Program-made: the position numbers and the translations under genes
Source of the DNA: Candidatus Binatia bacterium
GTDB lineage: Bacteria > Desulfobacterota_B > Binatia > UBA9968 > JAJDTQ01
Length of the DNA: 13,560 nucleotides
Reading direction: 5' to 3'
Assembly (NCBI GenBank): GCA_022827045.1
Contig: JAJDTQ010000090.1
Coordinates: 1-13,560 of the forward strand
In this document: in pieces, positions 1,003 to 13,560 of the stretch
Layout: every line of letters starts with the position of its first letter
Numbering within the stretch: the stretch's first letter is position 1
The notes under the pieces: generated by a model
Database searches by the model: none
What the model was told of the DNA's origin: nothing
The model's input: the letters and a program-made list of their open reading frames with translations, nothing else

Positions 1003-1404
1003 CTACGAGAAGAAAATCAGCTTCACCAGGAACGCAAGAATGGCCGGATGGAAGCCAAAAACGGCTAGATTCAGCACGGCGACCCTCTTGTCGATGCGGG
1101 CGATGTCCGCCTTGGTAGCCATGTTCGTTTCCAGCCTGGTGATGGCCTTCTCGAGTCTAAGGAAGTCCTCCCTGGTAGCCATTTGCGTTTCCAGCCTGGT
1201 GGTGGTCTTCTCCAGCCTTAGGAAGTCCTCCCTGGTGGCCATTTGCGTTTCCAGCCTGGTGGTAGTCTTCTCCAGCCTTAGGAAGTCCTCCCTGGTGGCC
1301 AAACGCTCCACAAGCGGCAACGCGCCGGCGGCCGCCCTGGCCTTTTCTTCGGTAGCTCCGGCTTCCATCAACGCCTCGTAGACCTCTGACACGATCAGAC
1401 CCAT
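1003..1404 (-). CDS. Small coiled-coil, tail-anchored membrane protein with 20-residue repeats
   Basis: 133 residues, not assignable to a characterised enzyme. The N-terminus (residues 5-30, SEVYEALMEAGATEEKARAA...) resembles the start of DUF1640/CCDC90-like coiled-coil proteins. Residues 36-95 are three near-identical 20-mers of the type ATREDFLRLEKTTTRLETQM, and residues 96-115 are a diverged fourth copy (ATKADIARIDKR...). The heptad-like spacing of Leu and the alternating charges predict a coiled coil. The last ~25 residues (LNLAVFGFHPAILAFLVKLIFF) are hydrophobic and probably form a C-terminal membrane anchor. Start ATG 1402-1404 has AGGGGG at 1411-1416, six bases upstream, and a good sigma70 promoter behind it, which supports a real monocistronic gene. 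Codon and base use look less GC-rich than in the neighbours, so it may be accessory DNA. Oligomerisation or a scaffold role is only a guess. Confidence 0.72.
   Translation of the reverse strand: MGLIVSEVYEALMEAGATEEKARAAAGALPLVERLATREDFLRLEKTTTRLETQMATREDFLRLEKTTTRLETQMATREDFLRLEKAITRLETNMATKADIARIDKRVAVLNLAVFGFHPAILAFLVKLIFFS
1060..1299 (-). repeat. 60-bp in-frame tandem repeats inside the coiled-coil gene
   Basis: Four consecutive 60-bp units encode the four 20-residue repeats. Aligned by hand, 1181-1240 and 1241-1300 differ at one base (1204 g versus 1264 a), 1121-1180 differs from them at about eight, and the unit at about 1061-1120 is strongly diverged at DNA level. The gradient from identical to diverged indicates stepwise duplication with a recent last step. 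Unit length is a multiple of three, so gain or loss keeps the frame. Confidence 0.92.
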
Positions 1405-3924: not shown

Positions 3925-4938
3925 ATGCGGAGAAGAACGAGTTTGCGGAAGTCTCTTACCATGTCGGTCGCGGCCGCTGCCGCGCTGTTGCTGTGCCTGC
4001 TGGTCGGCTCCAATGCCGGCGCCCAGAAGCTGCCGAGCAAGATTACCTGGATCGTTCCCTTCGGACTGGGGGGCGGCACCGGGACATCGGCTCTGCTGCT
4101 GGCGCCGAAGCTGCAGGCGAAGCTCGCGGGCAACGGCGTCAAGGAAGTCAAGGTGGTGAGCCTGCCGGGCGCAGGCGGCACCGTGGGGACGAAGAGGCTC
4201 TACGGCTCGCCGGCGGACGGGAGCGTCATCGGCAGCATGCTGCCGGCCGGCGGACTGGCGCAGTCCGCGACGAGGGACGTGGGCTTCGACCTCTCCAAGT
4301 TCACGTACCTGGCGAAGATCACCACGGCTCCGCGTTTCCTGTTCGTGAAAGGAGACTCCCCCATCAAGACGCTGGACGACCTGATCGCCGAAGGAAAGAA
4401 GCGGCCGCTGAAGGTTTCGTCGGTGGGCCCCGCCTCGGCGGGTTCGTTCGTGCTGGCCAACATCATCGACAAGACCGGCATCCAGGTGAAGGACGTCACC
4501 GGGTACAAGAGCGGGCGTTCGCTGGTGGTGGCGGTGGCGCGCGGCGACGTGGACACCACCATCAAGACCACGGGCGGCGTGATCACCTTCATCAAGTCCG
4601 GCGAGGTCCGGGGTCTGGTTCAGCTCTCCTCGGAGAAGGACAAGGACCCGTTCTTCCCGGACGTGCCTTCGGCGGAGTCACTCGGACGCAAGGATCTCAT
4701 GGCCGGCGGCATCCTGTACATCCTCGTGGCGGCGCCCCCCAAGATGCCGCAGCCCGTCGCGGACGTGCTGAGGAACGCCGTGCACCAGGTCATCTCCGAG
4801 TCCAAGGCGGAGCTCGAGAGCAAGGCCCAGGTCATCCACGCCCCCGCCACCGGCAAGGAGACGACCGTGCTCGTAAACAACCTGATCAAGGACTACGCGA
4901 ACCTGATCGCCCTCTACAAGGCGCAGCAGAAGAAGTAG
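3925..4938 (+). CDS. tctC: TctC/Bug-family periplasmic solute-binding protein of a tripartite tricarboxylate transporter
   Basis: 337 residues. The N-terminus is a Sec signal peptide: basic residues 1-9 (MRRRTSLRK), hydrophobic core 14-27, and a likely signal-peptidase I site after Ala33 (NAGA|QKLP). Cys24 lies in the core without a proper lipobox, so a lipoprotein is unlikely. The mature part keeps Bug-family landmarks: the first strand ITWIVPFGLGGGTG, the ligand-loop motif LPGAGGTVGTKRL (about 80-92), the PADGSVIG segment, and a C-terminal PQPVADVLRNAV helix. Length is normal (about 320-335). It captures an organic acid or related small molecule in the periplasm and delivers it to TctA/TctB; Bug ligands are too varied to name one. 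The start is supported by GGAGGTG at 3914-3920. It is followed by TctA after a 170-base gap with hairpins and no TctB. Confidence 0.92.
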   Translation: MRRRTSLRKSLTMSVAAAAALLLCLLVGSNAGAQKLPSKITWIVPFGLGGGTGTSALLLAPKLQAKLAGNGVKEVKVVSLPGAGGTVGTKRLYGSPADGSVIGSMLPAGGLAQSATRDVGFDLSKFTYLAKITTAPRFLFVKGDSPIKTLDDLIAEGKKRPLKVSSVGPASAGSFVLANIIDKTGIQVKDVTGYKSGRSLVVAVARGDVDTTIKTTGGVITFIKSGEVRGLVQLSSEKDKDPFFPDVPSAESLGRKDLMAGGILYILVAAPPKMPQPVADVLRNAVHQVISESKAELESKAQVIHAPATGKETTVLVNNLIKDYANLIALYKAQQKK

Positions 4939-4973
4939 GCTCGAACCGGGCTTGAAGCCTCCTACCGCACCGT

Positions 4974-5042
4974 CCGGCCTGGATGATCCGCGGATTGTCT
5001 TGTCCGCGCATCCGGGCCGGCCCTGGTGGCCCCGCCGCCAGG
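4974..5042 (+). other. Two consecutive strong hairpins between tctC and tctA
   Basis: Hairpin 1 (4974-5020): outer stem 4974-4985 with 5009-5020 (12 pairs, one G-U), a 3-base bulge ATC (4986-4988), inner stem CGCGGA/TCCGCG (4989-4994 with 5003-5008) and an 8-base loop. Hairpin 2 (5022-5042): CCTGGTGGC/GCCGCCAGG, nine pairs with one G-U, loop CCC. Neither has a U-tract. Such structures after a binding-protein gene commonly protect the upstream mRNA from 3' exonucleases or partly end transcription, giving more binding protein than permease. A short 5-bp hairpin at 5077-5090 lies just ahead of the tctA ribosome site. Confidence 0.62.
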
Positions 5043-5108
5043 ATGACGTACCACGCCAAGCCGCGCGTTCCATGCACGTCGCGGCCGACGCGCTGAAAGA
5101 GATGCTCC

Positions 5109-6623
5109 GTGATTGAGGCGATCGGCGAAGCGCTGCTCAACGTTTTCGGGTTTCCCAACGTCCTGGTGGTGCTTCTCGGCGTCACGGTGAGCATGCTCTT
5201 CGGCGCCCTGCCCGGCCTGGGCGGCATCGTCATCCTGACCCTGTCGCTGCCCGTCATCATGGCGATGGAGACGAAGCTGGCCATGATGGTCTTCGCCGCT
5301 TCCATCGGCGGCATCACCTTCGGCGGCTCCATCTCCGCCATCCTGCTCAACGTCCCCGGCACCGTCGCCAACATCGCGACAGTCTTCGACGGGCATCCGC
5401 TGGCCCGGCAGGGACGCGCCGGCTACGCCCTCGCCATCTCCGCGACGGCGTCCGCCCTGGGGTCGGTGTTCGGCTACGTGATCTTCCTGCTGCTCCTCCC
5501 GGTGGTGCGCTCGGTGGTGTTCTCCTTCGGCCCGCCGGAGTTCTTCCTCATGGCGCTGCTGGGCATCAGCCTGATCGCGTCGCTGACCCAGAGCGAACCG
5601 GTCAAGGGGCTCATCTCCGCGGGACTGGGATTCCTGGTGGCCTTCATCGGGTACTCTCCGATTACCGGGGACGTGCGGTACGCCTTCGACCTGGACTATC
5701 TCTGGGACGGGGTCCACACAGGAGTTATCGCCATCGGCATCTTCGCCGTTTCCGAGATGTTCTTCCTGGCGGTGAAGGGCGAAGAGCTGGTCCAGGACAC
5801 CGGGGTGGTGCGGCCCACGGTCAGGGATGTGCTGGACGGCGTCCGGTTCGTGCTCGCCAACTTCTTCCTGCTGGTCCGGAGCGCGGTGATCGGCTGCGTG
5901 GTGGGCATAATCCCGGGTGTCGGCGCCAATGTCGCGGCCTTTCTGGCCTATGCCCAGGCGCAGGCGACCTCCCGGAACCGCGCCAACTTCGGCCGCGGCG
6001 CACCGGAGGGAGTACTCGCACCGGAGGCTTCCAACGATGCCAAGGACGGCGGCGCGCTGCTTCCCACAGTGGCCTTCGGGATTCCCGGGAGCGCGCCCCA
6101 CGCCATCCTGCTGGTGGGGCTGCTGCTGCTCGGATTGAACCCGGGCAAGGAGTTGCTGACCACACACCAGGCCACGGTGTTCACCCTGGTGCTGGCGCTG
6201 ATTGCGGCCAACGTGTGGACCTCCGTCCTGGGGCTCCTCTTCGCCAACCAGCTCGTCAAGATCACGCGGATCCGGGTCACGCTCATCATCCCCATCGTCC
6301 TGGTGATCAGCTTCGTCGGCGCCTTCGTGTTGCGCAACAATCTCCTGGACGCGTTCGCCGTGCTCGTGTTCGGCTTCATCGGCTACGGCATGAAGAAGTA
6401 CAATTACTCCTTCATCACCTTCATCCTCGCCTACGTGCTCGGGGAGATAGCCGAGGTCTCGCTGTTCCAGACGCTGCTCATCTCGGACACCGGTTTCCTG
6501 ATCTTCGTCACCCGTCCCATTTCGCTGGTGCTGACCCTGCTCATCCTCGTGGCCCTGGGCCTCCCACTGGTCGGCCCGCTCAAGCGGGCATGGACTCGGC
6601 CTCAACTGCCGGACGCCCGCTAG
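5109..6623 (+). CDS. tctA: TctA-family large membrane subunit of a tripartite tricarboxylate transporter
   Basis: 504 residues, starting at GTG 5109 with a modest GAAAGAGA site upstream; the nearby ATG at 5102 hits a stop after four codons. The protein is hydrophobic nearly throughout, consistent with the roughly 10-12 membrane helices of the family. Signature blocks: FGALPGLGG (31-39), FGGSISAILLNVPG (71-84), DGHPLARQGRAGYAL (94-108), and the second half's GIIPGVGANVAAFLAYAQAQ (from about 265) and FGIPGSAPHAILL (about 322-334). The two PG-G loops mirror the internal duplication of TctA. It carries the solute across the inner membrane using an ion gradient, with the small TctB subunit and periplasmic TctC. 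TctB is not adjacent; a TctB gene lies at 10559-11074 on the other strand. The next gene begins only 6 bases after this stop. Confidence 0.95.
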   Translation: MIEAIGEALLNVFGFPNVLVVLLGVTVSMLFGALPGLGGIVILTLSLPVIMAMETKLAMMVFAASIGGITFGGSISAILLNVPGTVANIATVFDGHPLARQGRAGYALAISATASALGSVFGYVIFLLLLPVVRSVVFSFGPPEFFLMALLGISLIASLTQSEPVKGLISAGLGFLVAFIGYSPITGDVRYAFDLDYLWDGVHTGVIAIGIFAVSEMFFLAVKGEELVQDTGVVRPTVRDVLDGVRFVLANFFLLVRSAVIGCVVGIIPGVGANVAAFLAYAQAQATSRNRANFGRGAPEGVLAPEASNDAKDGGALLPTVAFGIPGSAPHAILLVGLLLLGLNPGKELLTTHQATVFTLVLALIAANVWTSVLGLLFANQLVKITRIRVTLIIPIVLVISFVGAFVLRNNLLDAFAVLVFGFIGYGMKKYNYSFITFILAYVLGEIAEVSLFQTLLISDTGFLIFVTRPISLVLTLLILVALGLPLVGPLKRAWTRPQLPDAR

Positions 6624-6629
6624 TGTCCC

Positions 6630-9600
6630 ATGACTTTCTACGCCGACCTGCACATCCACTCCCGATTCTCCCGCGCTACCAGCCGCAACTGCGACCTCGA
6701 GCACCTCGCCATCTGGGCGCGCAAGAAGGGCATCGCTGTCGTCGGCACCGGTGATTTCACCCATCCGGCGTGGCGGGCCGAGCTGAAGGATCAGCTCGTG
6801 CCGGCGGAGCCCGGGCTGTTCCGGCTGCGTCCCGACCTCGAGCGTGCCGTCGAAGCGCAGCTCCCGCCGGCATGCGCCGGCGCCGACGCGGCGGTCCGGT
6901 TCATGCTGTCCGTCGAGATCTCGACCATCTACAAGAAAGGCGACAAGACCCGGAAAATCCATCACCTTGTCTATGTGCCCGACTTCGACTCGGCCGACAG
7001 GTTGGTGGCGGCCCTGTCCAGAATCGGCAACCTCAACTCCGACGGACGCCCGATCCTGGGCCTCGACTCCCGCCACCTGCTGGAGATGACGCTGGCGTCG
7101 GGACCTGACTCATACCTGGTGCCCGCCCACGTGTGGACGCCGTGGTTCGCGGCTCTGGGCTCCAAGTCCGGCTTCGACGCCGTCGACGACTGTTACGGCG
7201 ACTTGGCGCCGCACATCTTCGCGGTGGAGACCGGGCTCTCGTCGGACCCGCCGATGAACTGGCGGGTGTCGTCCCTGGACCGCTTCCGGCTGATGTCCAA
7301 CTCCGACGCCCACTCGCCGGAGAAGCTGGGGCGGGAGGTGTGCGTCTTCCACACCGAAATGGACTACTTCGCCCTTCGCCGGGCCCTGGAGACGGGCCAC
7401 GGCTACGGCGGGACGCTGGAGTTCTTTCCCGAGGAGGGCAAGTACCACCTCGACGGCCACCGCAACTGCAACGTCCGCCTGGAGCCCGACGAAACCCGCC
7501 GCCACAACGGCCTCTGCCCCGCCTGCGGCAAGCCCTTGACCGTGGGGGTGATGCACCGTGTCGAGGACCTGGCCGACCGTGGTTCCGACGCAACTCCGCC
7601 CGGGACGGCGGGGGACACCGAGGGCCTAATCCCGCTGCCGGAGATCCTGGGAGAGATCCACCGCGTGGGACCCAAGAGCAAGCGGGTGGCGCAGGACTAC
7701 GAGGGGTTGCTGGCCCGCCTTGGGCCTGAGCTCCCGCTCCTGAATTCCCTGCCGCTGGAGGAGATCGGGCCGGCGGCGTCTTCGCTGGTGGCCGAAGCGG
7801 TGGCGCGCCTGCGCCGGCGCGAGGTGATCCGGGAGGCCGGCTACGACGGCGTGTACGGCACGATCCGGTTGTTCCGGGACATTGAGCTGGAACGGCGAAG
7901 CCGCGGGGCGTCGCTGTTCGGAGACGACCTCAAGCCCGTGAGGCAAGCGGCTCCGGCCTCGGCGGACGAGGTCGATGCCCCTCCCCTCCAGGAACCGCCT
8001 CTTCCCGGGCCGGCGTCGCCTTCGGGCAGCGCGCGGTGGGACGACGCAACGTCCGGCCAGCTTTCGCTCTCGGGAGAACTATGGTCCGGCGGCCGGGATC
8101 TGCTGGCCGGCCTCGACGCCGATCAACGCCGGGCCGCGGAGATCGTCGACGGTCCGCTGCTCATCGTCGCCGGTCCCGGCTCGGGGAAGACGCGGACCCT
8201 GACCCATCGCCTCGCCCACCTCGTGACGAGCCGCGGCGTTGCGCCGGGCGGCTGTCTGGCCGTCACCTTCACCCGCCGGGCGGCCGACGAGATGCGCGGC
8301 CGGCTGCGGGCGCTCTTGCCGGACGCATGGGACGGCATCCCGTTGCACACCTTTCATTCGCTCGGGCTGAGCATCCTCCGCGAACACTGGAACGCCGCGG
8401 GGTTCCAGCGAGGTTTCCGGGTTGCCTCCGAGGCCGAACGGCTGTCATTGATGCAGGACACGCTCGAGATCTCCGAACGGCAGGCCCGCGCGCGCTTGTC
8501 CGTCATCTCCCGCGGCAAGCGGACGGGCGCACCTGCCGCGGACCAACAGCTTGCGCAGGCTTGGGAGGCCTACCGGCGCGAGATGGAGACGCGCAACTGG
8601 TGCGACTTCGACGACCTGGTCATCCGCGCCGCGGACGCTCTGGAACTCGATGACGAATCTCGCGCCAAGGTGCGGCAGCGGTATCCGTGGGTCTGCATCG
8701 ACGAGTACCAGGATGTGGACGAGCAGCAGGTGCGCCTCATCCGGCAGATCGCGCCGCCCGACGGCAACATCTGCGCCATCGGCGATCAGGCCATCTACGG
8801 CTTCCGCGGCGCCGACCGGCGGTTCTTCGCCGACTTCACCGAACACTTCCCGGGCGCCCGGGTGATGCGGCTCGACCGCAACTACCGCTCCAACTCCAAC
8901 ATCGTCACCCTCTCGTCGCAGGTCATCGCCGCGGCGGCGTCGGCGGGGCCGTCCATCCCCGTGCTCGACGACGCCCCCGACCGCGTCACCCTCCACGAAG
9001 CCCCGAGCGAAAAGGCCGAGGCGGAGTTCGTCGTGCAGTCGCTGGAAGAGACCCTTGGTGGCCACAGCTTCTTCTCCATCGACAGCGGGCGCGCGGCCGA
9101 GGTCCAGGGCCGCGACCTGTCCTTCTCGGACTTTGCCGTGCTCTACCGCACCGAAGCCCAGGCCGCGGCACTGGTGGAGGCGCTCCAGCGCTCCGGCATG
9201 CCCTTCCAGCAGCGCTCCCACGATCCCCTGCTGGATCATCCCGGGGTGGCCGCGCTGGTGGACAGCCTGAGCGGATCCCCCGACGGGGGTCCGGTGCGCC
9301 AACGGCTAGAAGCCGCCCGCGGGGACGAACAGACCGCACGAGAAGCCTGCGAGTTGCTGAAGCCCCTGGCCGATGCGTGCGGCGACGACCTGGAGCGCTT
9401 CCTGGCCGAGCTGGCCCTGGCGGCCCAGGTGGACACCTGGGACCCCCGCGCCGACCGGATCTCGCTGTTGACGCTTCACGCCGCCAAGGGGCTCGAATTC
9501 CCCGTCGTTTTCATCGTCGGGTGCGAGGACGGCCTGCTCCCCCTTACCTGGGGCAAGGCCGAGCCCGACGGCCTCGCCGAAGAGCGGCGCCTGTTCTACG

Positions 9601-9794
9601 TCGGCGTCACCCGCGCCATGACCCGGCTGTACCTCTGCCGCGCCCGCAAGCGGCTGTGGCGGGGAAGAATGCGCGAGATGCCCCCTTCCCCCTACCTCGC
9701 CGACATCGAGGAACGGCTTCTCGAACAAAGCCGCAGCCGCGCGGCCGGAGGGCGGACGCGGAAGCAAGATAACCAGCTGGACCTGTTCTCCTAG
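6630..9794 (+). CDS. Endonuclease Q (PHP nuclease) - UvrD/Rep helicase fusion with C-terminal clamp motif
   Basis: 1054 residues in one uninterrupted frame. Residues 1-~425 match the EndoQ family (standalone length about 400-425): PHP metal residues D6-L-H8-I-H10, GTGDFTH (39-45), E96, H111/H112, H167 and D226-A-H228, then a probable zinc module with EEGKYHLDGHRNC (268-280; H277, C280) and CPAC (C296, C299) before TVGVMHRVEDLADR. Known EndoQ enzymes nick DNA 5' of uracil, hypoxanthine, xanthine and abasic sites. Residues ~430-490 are a Pro/Ala-rich linker. Residues 490-1015 are an SF1A helicase: Q499, Walker A AGPGSGKT (514-521), Ia (544-556), DEYQD (691-695), GDQAIYGFRGAD (718-729), RLDRNYRSN (747-755), TLHAAKGLEF (948-957), RRLFYVGVTRA (986-996). 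All key residues are present. The chain ends NQLDLFS. It sits 6 bases after tctA without a clear Shine-Dalgarno. Fusion certain; combined repair role inferred. Confidence 0.93.
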   Translation: MTFYADLHIHSRFSRATSRNCDLEHLAIWARKKGIAVVGTGDFTHPAWRAELKDQLVPAEPGLFRLRPDLERAVEAQLPPACAGADAAVRFMLSVEISTIYKKGDKTRKIHHLVYVPDFDSADRLVAALSRIGNLNSDGRPILGLDSRHLLEMTLASGPDSYLVPAHVWTPWFAALGSKSGFDAVDDCYGDLAPHIFAVETGLSSDPPMNWRVSSLDRFRLMSNSDAHSPEKLGREVCVFHTEMDYFALRRALETGHGYGGTLEFFPEEGKYHLDGHRNCNVRLEPDETRRHNGLCPACGKPLTVGVMHRVEDLADRGSDATPPGTAGDTEGLIPLPEILGEIHRVGPKSKRVAQDYEGLLARLGPELPLLNSLPLEEIGPAASSLVAEAVARLRRREVIREAGYDGVYGTIRLFRDIELERRSRGASLFGDDLKPVRQAAPASADEVDAPPLQEPPLPGPASPSGSARWDDATSGQLSLSGELWSGGRDLLAGLDADQRRAAEIVDGPLLIVAGPGSGKTRTLTHRLAHLVTSRGVAPGGCLAVTFTRRAADEMRGRLRALLPDAWDGIPLHTFHSLGLSILREHWNAAGFQRGFRVASEAERLSLMQDTLEISERQARARLSVISRGKRTGAPAADQQLAQAWEAYRREMETRNWCDFDDLVIRAADALELDDESRAKVRQRYPWVCIDEYQDVDEQQVRLIRQIAPPDGNICAIGDQAIYGFRGADRRFFADFTEHFPGARVMRLDRNYRSNSNIVTLSSQVIAAAASAGPSIPVLDDAPDRVTLHEAPSEKAEAEFVVQSLEETLGGHSFFSIDSGRAAEVQGRDLSFSDFAVLYRTEAQAAALVEALQRSGMPFQQRSHDPLLDHPGVAALVDSLSGSPDGGPVRQRLEAARGDEQTAREACELLKPLADACGDDLERFLAELALAAQVDTWDPRADRISLLTLHAAKGLEFPVVFIVGCEDGLLPLTWGKAEPDGLAEERRLFYVGVTRAMTRLYLCRARKRLWRGRMREMPPSPYLADIEERLLEQSRSRAAGGRTRKQDNQLDLFS

Positions 9795-10559: not shown

Positions 10560-11074
10560 TACAACCCCACCGCCTTCCACACTACTCCCTCGTGCAACGG
10601 GGCGCCCATGATGACGATGAAGACGATGTAGACGAACGCCCAGGTGACGGCGGTGATGGAGAGGGTCATGAGCCAGCTCTCGGAGGAGCGCAGGCGCAGG
10701 AACAGGACGAGGAACAGGGGGATGGCCACGAGGTAGCCGAGAAAGTAGATCAGCGCCATCAGCAGGAGCAGCCAGGCGGCGAAGTTGAGCTCGCGGCGGA
10801 AGACCGTGCCGGAGGGACGGCTTTCCTCGGAGGGTGCGGCGGCGCGGCCGGTGTCGATGCCGAAGAGGTCGTATTCCTGAAGGAAGCTGAAGCGGCGCCC
10901 CACCGCGGGAATCATGTCGATCAATAGCTGGAGCAGGGTCAACAGCAGCGTGGGCACCGCGATGATGAGCGGCACAAGGCGGGCCCGCGGCTGGTAATCC
11001 AGGGAGAGGACCAGGAACCCCAGGACCAGGACGAAGACGCCGAGAGTGAAGAGGGTCCGGTCGTTGAGCTTCAC
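10559..11074 (-). CDS. tctB: TctB-family small membrane subunit of a tripartite tricarboxylate transporter
   Basis: 171 residues from a GTG start at 11074, preceded by GAGGTG five bases upstream. The layout is typical of TctB: hydrophobic segments at about 8-25 and 32-52, a hydrophilic loop at 55-98 (RRFSFLQEYDLFGID... SGTVFRREL), then hydrophobic stretches at 99-127 and 135-157. The N-terminal GVFVLVLGFLVLSLDYQP resembles the family's first helix. TctB is the poorly conserved partner needed by TctA for transport. It is the last gene of a minus-strand operon, 42 bases after the carboxyltransferase stop, and no tctA or tctC follows; the only ones in view are on the opposite strand at 3925-6623. 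Assignment rests on topology, length and general resemblance rather than a catalytic motif. Confidence 0.82.
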   Translation of the reverse strand: MKLNDRTLFTLGVFVLVLGFLVLSLDYQPRARLVPLIIAVPTLLLTLLQLLIDMIPAVGRRFSFLQEYDLFGIDTGRAAAPSEESRPSGTVFRRELNFAAWLLLLMALIYFLGYLVAIPLFLVLFLRLRSSESWLMTLSITAVTWAFVYIVFIVIMGAPLHEGVVWKAVGL

Positions 11075-11116: not shown

Positions 11117-12577
11117 TCAGGCGTCCCTTTGCTCCAGCCGCAACGACAGGTCCCTCCGCTGGATATGCACCTGCCGAAGCTCGCGGGCGGCCGCGAGCTG
11201 CTTCACCAGGACCGAGACCGGACGAGTCGCATCGAGAAATTCCCGGGGGGCGCCGGCCGCCAGCATCTCCTTGACAGAGTCGGGGCCGGCGATGACCCGG
11301 ATCACCAGCTCCTCGTCCGAGACACCCGCGCCGCCGAACTTCTGTCGCACCTCGTTCAGCGTGGGCTCCGGCCAGGTCCAGCCTCCCCATTCCCGGGCTC
11401 GGGGCCGGCTCAGGATCTTGTCCTTGACCTCCGGGTCCATGAGCCGCGCGCCCTCCTCGCCCCAATACCCCAGGGCGTACTGGATGCTCTGGTCCGTGAC
11501 CTCCTTGTAGCGCTCACCCGCCATGACGTTCACCGCCGCCTGGGTGCCGACGAACTGGGCCAGCGGCGTCACCATGATAGGGTAGCCGTACTCCTCGCGC
11601 ACGCGCCCCGCCTCCTCCAGGGTCTCCTCCAGCCTGTCGCCCATGCCCACGGTCTCGAGCTGAAAGCGCAGGTTGGAGATCATGCCGCCGGGCACCTGGT
11701 GCAGGTATTGGGCGTGGTCGTATTCCCTGGGAGCGCCGATGGGAAAGTTCTCCTGCCGGGCCACGCGGGTGAAGTGCTCCTCCACCGGCCTCACCGCCTC
11801 CAGGTCCACCATGGGCGTGAAGCCCAGGGCCTCGGCGTTGGCCGCCACGTTGAAGATGGAGGGCTGCGACGAACCGTTGGCCAAGGGCGGAATAGCGGTG
11901 TGGAGCGTCTTGACGCCCAGCTTGAGGGCTTCGACGTAGTTGAAGGGCGCGAGGCTGTTGTTGCAGTGGGCGTGGAATTCCACCGGGATATCGCCGACGT
12001 TGGCCATGACGAGCTGGAGCATCTCCCGGGTACGGTCCGGCGTCAACAGCCCGCCCACGTCCTTGAAGCAGACCCGGTAGGGGCGCAGCGCCGCCAGCTC
12101 GCGGGTCTTCCGCTCGTAGTACTCGTTGGTGTGCTTGGGCGAGACCGAGTAGATGATGTTGCCCACCACCTCCATGCCCCTGCTTCCCAGAAACTCGAGC
12201 TCCTTGGCGAGCACGCCGTAGTCGTTCCACGGGTTGGACGAGCGCGTGAGGGTGATGCCGTGGGCGATGACGCATTCCAGCAGGAGACGCCGAATGCACG
12301 GGGGAATGGGCTCGAAGCCGGAGCCGATGCCGCCGTGGTGGCGCAGCCGGGTCCTGGAAAACTGCTTCACGCCCAGCCGCACCCAGTCCCAGGGATTCTC
12401 CTTGAGCTCCCGCACCTGCTTGATGATGCTGGCGAAGCCGAAGAACTCCATCGACTCGAAGCCGCAGCGGTCCATCTGCCGGGCGGCTCCCAGCATGTGG
12501 CCGATGCGCATGCGCAGGGCCCAAAGGCTCAAGTGCCCGTCCCTCAGGGTGGTGTCGACAAAACGTATCTCGCTCAT
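11117..12577 (-). CDS. Pyruvate carboxylase/oxaloacetate decarboxylase-type carboxyltransferase, no biotin domain
   Basis: 486 residues from MSEIRFVDTTLRDGHLSLWA; the frame is open 38 codons further but runs into the preceding gene and looks unlike protein. It is an HMGL-like TIM barrel with the post-barrel conserved carboxylase domain. Metal and catalytic positions of the PC/OadA/transcarboxylase-5S group are present: D8 of DTTLRD, K172 of the carboxylated-lysine motif FKDVGGLL, H202 and H204 of FHAHCNNS, and S301 in PGGMISNL where pyruvate carboxylases have Thr and decarboxylase subunits Ser. Two departures: the pyruvate-binding Gln of the usual RD(A/G)HQSL motif is Leu16, and the chain stops without a biotinyl domain (no AMKM). 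It would need a separate biotin carrier, or has a different acid substrate or mechanism. It lies 56 bases after the MmgE-like gene, with a poor ribosome site, and before tctB. Confidence 0.88.
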   Translation of the reverse strand: MSEIRFVDTTLRDGHLSLWALRMRIGHMLGAARQMDRCGFESMEFFGFASIIKQVRELKENPWDWVRLGVKQFSRTRLRHHGGIGSGFEPIPPCIRRLLLECVIAHGITLTRSSNPWNDYGVLAKELEFLGSRGMEVVGNIIYSVSPKHTNEYYERKTRELAALRPYRVCFKDVGGLLTPDRTREMLQLVMANVGDIPVEFHAHCNNSLAPFNYVEALKLGVKTLHTAIPPLANGSSQPSIFNVAANAEALGFTPMVDLEAVRPVEEHFTRVARQENFPIGAPREYDHAQYLHQVPGGMISNLRFQLETVGMGDRLEETLEEAGRVREEYGYPIMVTPLAQFVGTQAAVNVMAGERYKEVTDQSIQYALGYWGEEGARLMDPEVKDKILSRPRAREWGGWTWPEPTLNEVRQKFGGAGVSDEELVIRVIAGPDSVKEMLAAGAPREFLDATRPVSVLVKQLAAARELRQVHIQRRDLSLRLEQRDA

Positions 12578-12633
12578 GTCCGTTCGTTCACGGGTGTCCA
12601 GCCCCCGCTCGGTCCGTGAGGCAGGGCGTCGCG

Positions 12634-13560
12634 TCACGGGCGCAGCAGCCGCACCCAGGAAGCCAGGGAATCGACGCTCTCCAGTGCCCACAGCTCATCG
12701 ATGAACTTCCGCAGGCTGCTCCCCTTCCCGACCCGCGCGTGCTCGGCGCACTGCCGAAACTTCTCCTCCAGGGCCCGTCGGTCCGGACGCCTGGCGGAAG
12801 CCCCGGACGCCGCTCCATAGTACCGAAGGCCGTCCGCTAAAGCCAGTTCCACTCTCGCCACCATGCCCTGGCCGCCTGGAGGGTTCAAGCCGGGGTCCTC
12901 CACCAACTCCACCCGAGGCATCAACGCCCGAACGGCGGGGTCCCGCACCCGGCCGTCGGTGTAGTGCGCAAGGGTGAGGCCGCGGTCGAGAAGCGCCGCC
13001 GCGGCGGTGTACGGCAGACTGAACTTGCCCTGGAGGCCGGTTTCAGGGCGTTCGTAGACCAGCGGGCGAGTAGCGTCGGGATGCAGGCGGATGCGCAACC
13101 GATGGACGGCGGCCGGGTTCACTTGGTGCTGCCGGATCAACGGCAGCAGGGCATCCAGCACCGGATGCATGACGCCGGCGCAGGGGTACCGCTTGATGAC
13201 GACGCCCGGCTCCCTCAGGAACCAGGGGCTGCCGAACCGCAACAACTCGGGGTCGTAGCGACCGCCGCAGGCGGCGCTGAAAAACCCCATGGGATCCTCG
13301 AACACGACGGCCGAGGCGGTGAAACCCTTGGCCGCGAGAGTTGCCGCCACCACGCCGTTCTCGGCCGCCCGTCCGGCGTTCAGCGCCTTGGCCATGGTGC
13401 CCCGGTTGGCGCGTAACCCAGCGCTGAGTCCGCCGGCAATGCCCAGCGTCCACCCGATACGCTCGCGGTCGAGCCCGAGGAGGTAGGCGCACGCGGCGGC
13501 GGCGCCGAACACGCCCAGCGTGCCCGTAGGATGGAAGCCGTCCATGTAGTGCCCCGGCTC
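12634..13560 (-). CDS. MmgE/PrpD family protein, 5' part outside window
   Basis: The frame is open to the window edge on the minus strand (it continues upstream of the Met at 13545 with EPGHY), so about the last 308 of some 450 residues are seen. Matches to the family: the FHPTGTLGVFGAAAACAYLLGLD helix, LSAGLRANRGTMAKALNAGRAAENGVVAATLAAKGFTAS (conserved K and H/N-x-G-x-A-A pattern), EDPMGFF, and the KRYPCAGVMHPVLDALLPL lid segment. Members include 2-methylcitrate dehydratase (PrpD), cis-aconitate decarboxylase and iminodisuccinate epimerase, all acting on small di- or tricarboxylates in the cytosol without an Fe-S cluster. Prp-pathway partners are not visible here, so I do not call it prpD. 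It is the upstream member of the operon with the carboxyltransferase and tctB, which suggests that all three serve one carboxylic acid. Confidence 0.9.
   Translation of the reverse strand, partial: EPGHYMDGFHPTGTLGVFGAAAACAYLLGLDRERIGWTLGIAGGLSAGLRANRGTMAKALNAGRAAENGVVAATLAAKGFTASAVVFEDPMGFFSAACGGRYDPELLRFGSPWFLREPGVVIKRYPCAGVMHPVLDALLPLIRQHQVNPAAVHRLRIRLHPDATRPLVYERPETGLQGKFSLPYTAAAALLDRGLTLAHYTDGRVRDPAVRALMPRVELVEDPGLNPPGGQGMVARVELALADGLRYYGAASGASARRPDRRALEEKFRQCAEHARVGKGSSLRKFIDELWALESVDSLASWVRLLRP

What the first reader, a model, noticed from the sequence alone, without database searches (positions are those of the whole stretch)
6630..9794. EndoQ-type base-damage nuclease fused to a UvrD/Rep helicase
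Seen: one 3.2-kb frame carries intact PHP metal residues, the EndoQ zinc segment and all SF1A helicase motifs, joined by a ~60-residue Pro-rich linker. Known: EndoQ, studied mainly in Thermococcales and a few bacteria, nicks 5' of deaminated bases and abasic sites; UvrD unwinds from nicks. Inference: the fusion may nick beside uracil or hypoxanthine and immediately unwind and remove the damaged strand, a single-chain alternative-excision repair machine distinct from glycosylase-based repair and from UvrABC. Similar unannotated fusions may exist in databases, but I know of no biochemical description.
Basis: partly seen in the sequence, partly recalled or inferred. Interest (0 to 1): 0.82.

Follow-up and report, generated by a model that had tools for sequence, protein, structure and literature searches.

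The report
Clamp-tagged repair nickase-helicase fusion protein
One bacterial protein joins an enzyme of a kind that cuts DNA beside damaged bases to a DNA-unwinding motor and ends in what looks like a tag for the replication clamp; it is widespread in bacterial databases, yet I found no experimental description of it.

Summary
The fusion is real. Window 6630-9794 (+) is one 1054-aa frame: an EndoQ-type PHP endonuclease (aa 1-418), a 64-aa disordered linker and a UvrD-like SF1A helicase (aa 490-1038). PfuEndoQ's catalytic and lesion-pocket residues are conserved in all 59 aligned proteins. It is not rare: 78 of 80 kept genome loci, nine phyla by NCBI label, encode it in one frame, and protein searches hit their ~8,000 limit. 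The halves co-diverge (r 0.93), so it is no assembly join. New here: (1) it ends in QLDLF, the canonical beta-clamp motif; its Gln is invariant in 59 of 59. Standalone bacterial EndoQs often carry such a motif right after EndoQ. (2) The autoinhibitory 2B subdomain is shrunken, gone in some relatives, and the helicases group apart from housekeeping UvrDs. (3) One genome has the two genes adjacent, each with a clamp motif. Best reading: a clamp-tethered enzyme nicks 5' of deaminated or abasic nucleotides, then unwinds the damaged strand. It mostly coexists with UDG and MutL. Caution: this copy lacks two motif III residues that all 58 other aligned proteins have. No activity is shown.

The parts
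6630..9794 (+). EndoQ-UvrD fusion gene, 1054 aa, ATG start, stop included
6630..7883 (+). EndoQ-type endonuclease part, aa 1-418 (PHP domain, zinc segment, helical part)
6915..6917 (+). E96, paired by motif with PfuEndoQ E76 (catalytic); invariant 59 of 59
   Evidence: role from PMC8307549 passage; E76 lies in a gap of the phmmer alignment
6960..6962 (+). H111 = PfuEndoQ H84 (catalytic)
7128..7130 (+). H167 = PfuEndoQ H139 (catalytic, pocket)
7233..7241 (+). G202-L203-S204 = PfuEndoQ G169-L170-S171 lesion pocket
   Evidence: role
7305..7313 (+). D226-A-H228 (PfuEndoQ D193, H195), PHP metal residues (role recalled)
7458..7526 (+). zinc segment H277, C280, C296, C299 (first Cys of PfuEndoQ replaced by His)
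7899..8090 (+). disordered linker aa 424-487, 9 Pro in 64
7905..7919 (+). GASLF, xxxLF element just after EndoQ; possible remnant of EndoQ's own clamp motif (QLDLF in L067/L069, QLGLF in L078)
   Evidence: L429, F430 at least 90% conserved
8097..9743 (+). UvrD-like SF1A helicase core aa 490-1038
8169..8192 (+). Walker A AGPGSGKT aa 514-521
8700..8714 (+). motif II DEYQD aa 691-695
8781..8789 (+). motif III site where two residues present in the 58 other aligned proteins are missing from this copy
9150..9470 (+). reduced 2B region (107 aa between motif IV LYR and motif V)
9774..9788 (+). QLDLF aa 1049-1053, canonical beta-clamp-binding motif in a disordered C-terminal tail
   Evidence: consensus

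Best explanation
It is a single-chain, clamp-tethered excision-repair enzyme. The EndoQ part flips out a deaminated base (uracil, hypoxanthine) or abasic site and nicks just 5' of it, leaving a 3'-OH and a lesion-bearing 5' end. The fused SF1A helicase loads at that nick and moves 3'-5' on the intact strand, peeling off the lesion-bearing strand. The C-terminal QLDLF motif holds the enzyme on the beta clamp, so nicking happens on clamp-loaded DNA and polymerase can extend the 3'-OH at once. The shrunken 2B subdomain means the motor is less autoinhibited than PcrA/UvrD, with damage specificity supplied in cis by EndoQ rather than by partners such as MutL. Shown here: domain identity, conserved active site, clamp-type motif, 2B reduction, a split homologue, co-divergence. 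Inferred: nicking specificity, helicase activity and polarity, clamp binding, order of steps.
Against: No biochemical data. This copy lacks two motif III residues. Standalone EndoQs nested in fused clades (L087, L089, L092, L093) show the helicase can be lost. Not every fused protein has the motif: of 19 fused frames from the phylum of G002, 7 fit the revised consensus and 15 a relaxed one; L110, which lacks 2B, has none. Some actinobacterial controls are also short between motifs IV and V (125-131 aa), and fused proteins range up to 181 aa. Most genomes sampled with it have UDG and MutL, so its niche is unclear. A five-residue motif is not proof of clamp binding.
Confidence: 0.6

Rival explanations
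1. The two halves are only loosely coupled: EndoQ nicks lesions, the helicase serves another clamp-linked task (for example Rep-like fork clearance or flap removal), and fusion mainly ensures co-delivery to the clamp.
For: Long variable linker (mean distance 0.77) and pTM 0.60 give no sign of a fixed interface; a split version exists; some fused clades lost the helicase.
Against: Halves co-diverge; the helicases group apart from housekeeping UvrDs and end in the clamp motif; 2B loss impairs protein displacement by Rep (PMC6158625 passages), which speaks against fork clearance.
Confidence: 0.22
2. Anti-phage defence effector against uracil- or hypoxanthine-containing phage DNA.
For: A review says bacterial EndoQ may take part in antiviral defence (PMC8307549 passage); PADLOC GajB models hit the helicase half up to 251 bits and a reverse-transcriptase-associated helicase model 218 bits.
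Against: The stretches shown for those hits lie in the UvrD half and the library gives no cut-off; no GajA-type domain among the ten window proteins scanned; neighbours vary and are metabolic in the window; no match in the phage and plasmid sets or, for close relatives, viral contigs.
Confidence: 0.06
3. In this particular organism the helicase half is inactive or altered because motif III lacks two residues, so here the protein works mainly as a clamp-tethered EndoQ nickase.
For: The 58 other aligned proteins have the residues; P0002, otherwise identical, has them.
Against: P0002 being identical elsewhere suggests an assembly or sequencing slip, or a very recent deletion; the rest of the frame is intact.
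Confidence: 0.1
4. Assembly or prediction artefact joining two genes.
For: No whole genome is held for the window, so its reads or assembly cannot be checked.
Against: 78 of 80 kept loci have one uninterrupted frame, among them chromosome-level records (L003, L037); halves co-diverge.
Confidence: 0.01

Closest known systems
Endonuclease Q (PfuEndoQ, TkoEndoQ, B. pumilus EndoQ)
   Same: Homology over aa 4-418, same fold, catalytic and lesion-pocket residues; standalone bacterial EndoQs often end in a clamp motif (noted for bacterial homologues in PMC4858679)
   Different: Here fused to a helicase; clamp motif at the helicase end; one zinc Cys is His
PcrA/UvrD/Rep SF1A helicases
   Different: Groups apart from housekeeping relatives, scores far below PcrA/UvrD/Rep equivalog cut-offs, 2B reduced or lost; only 13 residues follow the PcrA-matching part, so no room for PcrA's Tudor domain (recalled); ends in a clamp motif
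RecBCD (helicase-nuclease reported to bind the beta clamp, PMC13254535)
   Same: Helicase and nuclease in one chain (RecB) with a clamp-binding motif (passages)
   Different: RecB acts at double-strand ends; its nuclease is of another family (recalled); here the nuclease is of a lesion-specific kind
EndoV- or UVDE-type alternative excision repair
   Same: Repair begins with a single nick near the lesion (PMC4357722 passages)
   Different: Different nuclease families and no fused motor (recalled)

Membership tests
Endonuclease Q | Catalytic residues E76, H84, H139 | tested here: met
   E96, H111, H167, 59 of 59 (E96 paired by motif)
Endonuclease Q | Lesion pocket H139, G169, S171 | tested here: met
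   H167, G202, S204, 59 of 59
Endonuclease Q | Four-cysteine zinc site with CPXCG | tested here: inconclusive
   Three Cys kept with CPACG; first Cys is His in 58 of 59; zinc binding not tested
Endonuclease Q | EndoQ fold over the whole domain | tested here: met
Endonuclease Q | Nicks 5' of dU, dI, AP sites | not testable with these tools
   needs an assay
NCBIfam TIGR00375 (EndoQ-like model) | Score above curated cut-off | tested here: not met
   132.7 bits against 326.6
SF1A UvrD-like helicase | Walker A, DEYQD, motif V (TLHAAKGLEF) and the conserved C-terminal motif region | tested here: met
SF1A UvrD-like helicase | Intact motif III | tested here: inconclusive
   two residues missing in this copy; present in the 58 other aligned proteins and 78 of 78 intact loci; gap may be an assembly slip
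PcrA/UvrD/Rep equivalogs | Score above equivalog cut-off | tested here: not met
   PcrA 365.5 against 911.2; UvrD 288.3 against 1144.45; Rep 282.6 against 951.45
PcrA/UvrD/Rep equivalogs | Full 2B subdomain | tested here: not met
   107 aa between motifs IV and V against 188-207 in PcrA-like controls
Beta-clamp clients | Clamp-binding pentapeptide QL[S/D]LF or revised form | tested here: met
   QLDLF at aa 1049-1053; consensus
Beta-clamp clients | Binds DnaN | not testable with these tools
   needs a binding assay
Gabija (GajB) | GajA OLD-family nuclease next to GajB (definition recalled) | tested here: not met
   none among ten window proteins scanned with Pfam

The most novel reading that the evidence does not exclude
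A widespread, essentially undescribed bacterial repair pathway: a lesion-specific nickase and a naturally 2B-reduced, constitutively active monomeric UvrD-type motor in one clamp-tethered chain, giving a one-protein counterpart of the 'nick, load UvrD, use the clamp' logic of mismatch repair, but aimed at deaminated and abasic DNA. Relatives such as L111, L115, L116, L118 and L120 would be natural versions of the laboratory Rep-delta-2B helicase.
Probability: 0.35. Interest if true: 0.78.

Novelty: new variant of a known kind. Interest (0 to 1): 0.57.

Why it matters
How EndoQ nicks are processed is only proposed in the EndoQ passages I read (PMC4357722). A natural fusion names a likely partner, a UvrD-type helicase, and the clamp motif names the platform. 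The family's natural series of motif IV-V lengths (43 to 181 aa) makes the autoinhibition model of UvrD-family helicases testable with natural proteins. It also shows EndoQ is far more common in bacteria than those passages state ('only a few bacterial genuses', PMC4357722): 80 of 118 genomes in the phylum sample around one Binatia genome have a match (the centre genome was chosen because it has it).

Tried and rejected
Assembly join: rejected. Replacement of UDG: tested by crossing by hand in the same 118 genomes. UDG is absent from 4 of 33 genomes with a fusion-length frame, 0 of 47 with a shorter EndoQ frame and 8 of 38 without EndoQ, so no simple replacement. Replacement of mismatch repair: MutL is over cut-off in 108 of 118, including 31 of 33 fusion-length genomes, so no. 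Mobile or viral gene: no match in phages, plasmids or viral contigs (exact peptide patterns, so close relatives only). Conserved neighbours: none beyond related lineages (the window plus 80 loci, ORFs called by a simple script, several of the groups look like spurious frames; largest group 7 loci). Defence system: see rivals.

Weak points of my measures. The motif IV-V length was measurable in 91 of 97 fused loci and 14 of 20 controls: nine of 14 controls were 188 or more (one 380), five 125-131. In one search, with a wider pattern, the shortest control was 39 aa, clearly mis-anchored. The GIG-like pattern is crude (3 of 91 fused loci, 6 of 118 listed proteins, 9 of 14 controls, 0 of 1 split helicase) and I do not lean on it. 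Trees were quick searches. EndoQ tree: 5 changes of fused/solo on 63 labelled rows against a shuffled mean of 15.7; five sequences were left out because my start pattern failed (L009, L088, L102, L124, L125) and L095 was left unlabelled because its frame runs off the contig. An earlier run with a narrower pattern, nine sequences failing, gave 4 changes on 58 rows. The root is not known, so one fusion with later losses is the simplest reading, not shown. Helicase tree: two long branches (L126, L117). Open-frame length was used to class genomes as fused: of 33 frames of 870 aa or more, 19 were fetched and all 19 have both parts in one frame; of 47 genomes with shorter frames, 21 were fetched, and some of the 47 are cut by contig ends. 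L045 (two frames) and L080 (one stop) were dropped from counts of intact fusions. Motif III: P0019 has a conservative change, P0042, P0143 and P0161 also miss the pattern and were not looked into. VIA lists: absence of a family there is not used as evidence.

Surveys with the EndoQ part as query (each centre genome was chosen for having the fusion). Phylum of G002 (Binatia record L003): 80 of 118 with a match, 33 with frames of at least 870 aa. Class of G002: 12 of 58, 7 fusion-length. Phylum of G010 (an actinomycete): 4 of 149, 3 fusion-length. Phylum of G012 (an alphaproteobacterium): 19 of 200, 10 fusion-length. Phylum of G009 (a planctomycete): 13 of 79, 6 fusion-length with a near-full match, plus G490, a 1110-aa frame with a weak partial match that I did not count. 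Phylum of G016 (Caldilineae): 2 of 81, 1 fusion-length. In 20 genomes with the fusion the listed rows show further UvrD-type genes and no standalone EndoQ, but the list was cut.

Literature: ten searches of a library of open-licence PMC papers; eight bear on EndoQ or PHP-UvrD proteins, two on clamp motifs and 2B. None of the listings or the passages I read describes the fusion. I read passages only, of PMC4357722, PMC8307549, PMC6202378, PMC11354406, PMC3820547, PMC4858679, PMC6158625, PMC9690074, PMC13254535 and PMC13238157. PMC7776575 and PMC7690668 name both EndoQ and UvrD and were seen as listings only. Three EndoQ papers asked for are not held, so 'not in print' is not claimed.

Full report

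Is it EndoQ? Yes by sequence and fold. PfuEndoQ E76, H84 and H139, whose alanine mutants are inactive, and H139, G169, S171, which block T and A in the pocket (PMC8307549, passages), correspond to E96, H111, H167, G202 and S204, each invariant in 59 of 59 aligned proteins. The E76-E96 pair lies in a gap of the phmmer alignment and rests on the motif. D193 and H195 correspond to D226 and H228, 59 of 59. Of the four zinc cysteines three are kept; the first is His (58 of 59). The score for NCBIfam TIGR00375 is below its cut-off (132.7 against 326.6).

Is it common? Very. The whole-protein search scored 7,994 candidates, its limit, all with E up to 1e-3, and the 120 listed are fusion-length. A search with the EndoQ part only, among proteins of 0.55 to 1.75 times the fusion's length, returned 7,993 of 7,993 with E up to 1e-20, again at the limit; seven of the 120 listed are pieces of 596-919 aa. 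The scan of one genome per species found 558 relatives and kept 80; 78 of 80 carry the fusion in one uninterrupted frame, from nine phyla by NCBI label, though 58 of the 78 are Actinomycetota. One such protein carries the source name 'UvrD-helicase domain-containing protein'; the others listed bear none. Surveys show patchy presence: 80 of 118, 12 of 58, 4 of 149, 19 of 200, 13 of 79 and 2 of 81 genomes in six taxon samples have an EndoQ-like match, with long and short frames side by side.

New feature 1, the clamp motif. The protein ends in ...KQDNQLDLFS. QL(S/D)LF is the published beta-clamp-binding consensus (PMC9690074, passage) and Q-aliphatic-x-[L/M]-[F/L] a revised one (PMC13254535, passages). 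QLDLF at 1049-1053 is the only match in the window protein. In 160 listed full-length relatives (the window included) the revised form lies in the last 25 residues of 112, against 1.48 in shuffled tails (maximum 5) and an internal density of 0.004 per 25 residues; a looser form lies in 158. Among the 78 intact loci the revised form lies in the last 25 of 52 and the looser one in 72; among 19 fused frames from the phylum of G002 the numbers are 7 and 15; 0 of 20 housekeeping UvrD-type controls from the same genomes have even the looser one (L132 runs off its contig). In the 59-row alignment the Gln is invariant, the second Leu present in 57 and Phe or Leu in 53, while the preceding tail is poorly conserved. 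Of 20 EndoQs in short frames with a complete end (L091 included), 5 fit the revised consensus, 9 if Met is allowed at the second place, 13 by a loose reading, and 7 have none (my reading of the printed ends). A clamp-type motif at the end of bacterial EndoQ homologues, and PCNA binding by archaeal EndoQ through a C-terminal PIP box, were reported in 2016 (PMC4858679, passages). In fusion proteins the old EndoQ end keeps a conserved LF (GASLF here), which is a full QLDLF in L067 and L069 and QLGLF in L078. The simplest history is that EndoQ brought its clamp motif, which decayed after a helicase with its own clamp motif became the C-terminus.

New feature 3, the split version. In L091 an EndoQ of 429 aa ending KQLSLF is followed on the same strand by a 676-aa stop-to-stop frame holding a helicase that ends KQMKLF and groups with the fused ones. 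That helicase has a long motif IV-V stretch (189 aa). So the two activities are also kept together as neighbouring genes. EndoQ and helicase halves of the 59 aligned proteins co-diverge (r 0.93; best of 500 permutations 0.18). The EndoQ tree needs 5 changes between fused and solo (shuffled mean 15.7), with solo genes nested inside fused clades (L087, L089, L092, L093, all without a clamp motif), best read as later loss of the helicase; the root is not known.

How it probably works. EndoQ leaves a 5'-phosphate and a 3'-OH at the incision (PMC4357722). An SF1A helicase moves 3'-5' (recalled). Loaded on the intact strand at the nick it would travel under the lesion-bearing strand and displace it from its 5' end, while a clamp-bound polymerase extends the 3'-OH. 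EndoQ's discoverers proposed displacement of the downstream strand with flap cutting; the fusion supplies a motor for this. Lesion specificity, clamp binding, helicase activity and order of steps are inferred.

What argues against. Nothing biochemical is known of the fusion. Most sampled genomes with a fusion-length frame also hold UDG (29 of 33) and MutL over cut-off (31 of 33) (crossed by hand), so it is an added route. It has no neighbour conserved beyond related lineages and no match in the phage, plasmid or viral sets searched. The window's own copy lacks two residues in motif III; P0002 is identical elsewhere but has them. I cannot tell whether this is real or an assembly slip, so tests should use an intact homologue.

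Novelty. Both parts are known families, and the architecture sits in databases, one entry under a generic name. Eight literature searches bearing on it in the held open-licence library listed no account of it; subscription papers are mostly not held. I rate it a new variant of a known kind: an EndoQ-type repair enzyme with its own motor and clamp tag.

Noticed in passing
window 8781-8789: Two residues of helicase motif III missing from this copy; an otherwise identical protein (P0002) has them. The flanking DNA, compared with L001, looks like a slip between short repeats.
   Followed up: partly
window 1003-1404 (-): 133-aa ORF over a 60-bp tandem repeat (1105-1301, 3.3 copies, 91% match), giving a 20-aa repeat ATREDFLRLEKTTTRLETQM; looks like a coiled-coil protein.
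   Followed up: no
window 3925-6623 (+) and 10562-11074 (-): Tripartite tricarboxylate transporter genes TctC and TctA directly upstream of the fusion gene, TctB downstream on the other strand. TctC and TctA matches occur in all of L001-L005 and TctB in four of them, so lineage-level synteny.
   Followed up: partly
P0121, P0122, P0132, P0149, P0162: A newer Pfam accession, PF27218, is the only domain listed on these EndoQ-only pieces and is listed on nearly all fusion proteins, so it probably models part of EndoQ.
   Followed up: no
L091: Adjacent EndoQ and helicase genes, each ending in a clamp motif; the only such pair among 21 fetched loci with a shorter EndoQ frame.
   Followed up: yes
G438:C171:4770-4940: A 688-aa frame matching only EndoQ residues 360-416: perhaps a helicase that kept the end of EndoQ.
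   Followed up: no
G490:C126:9067-10143: A 1110-aa frame with a weak, distant match to the EndoQ part (29% identity): perhaps another PHP fusion.
   Followed up: no
window 11117-13545 (-): Pyruvate-carboxylase-B-like HMGL protein next to an MmgE/PrpD-type gene, both also found in L001, L002 and L005.
   Followed up: no
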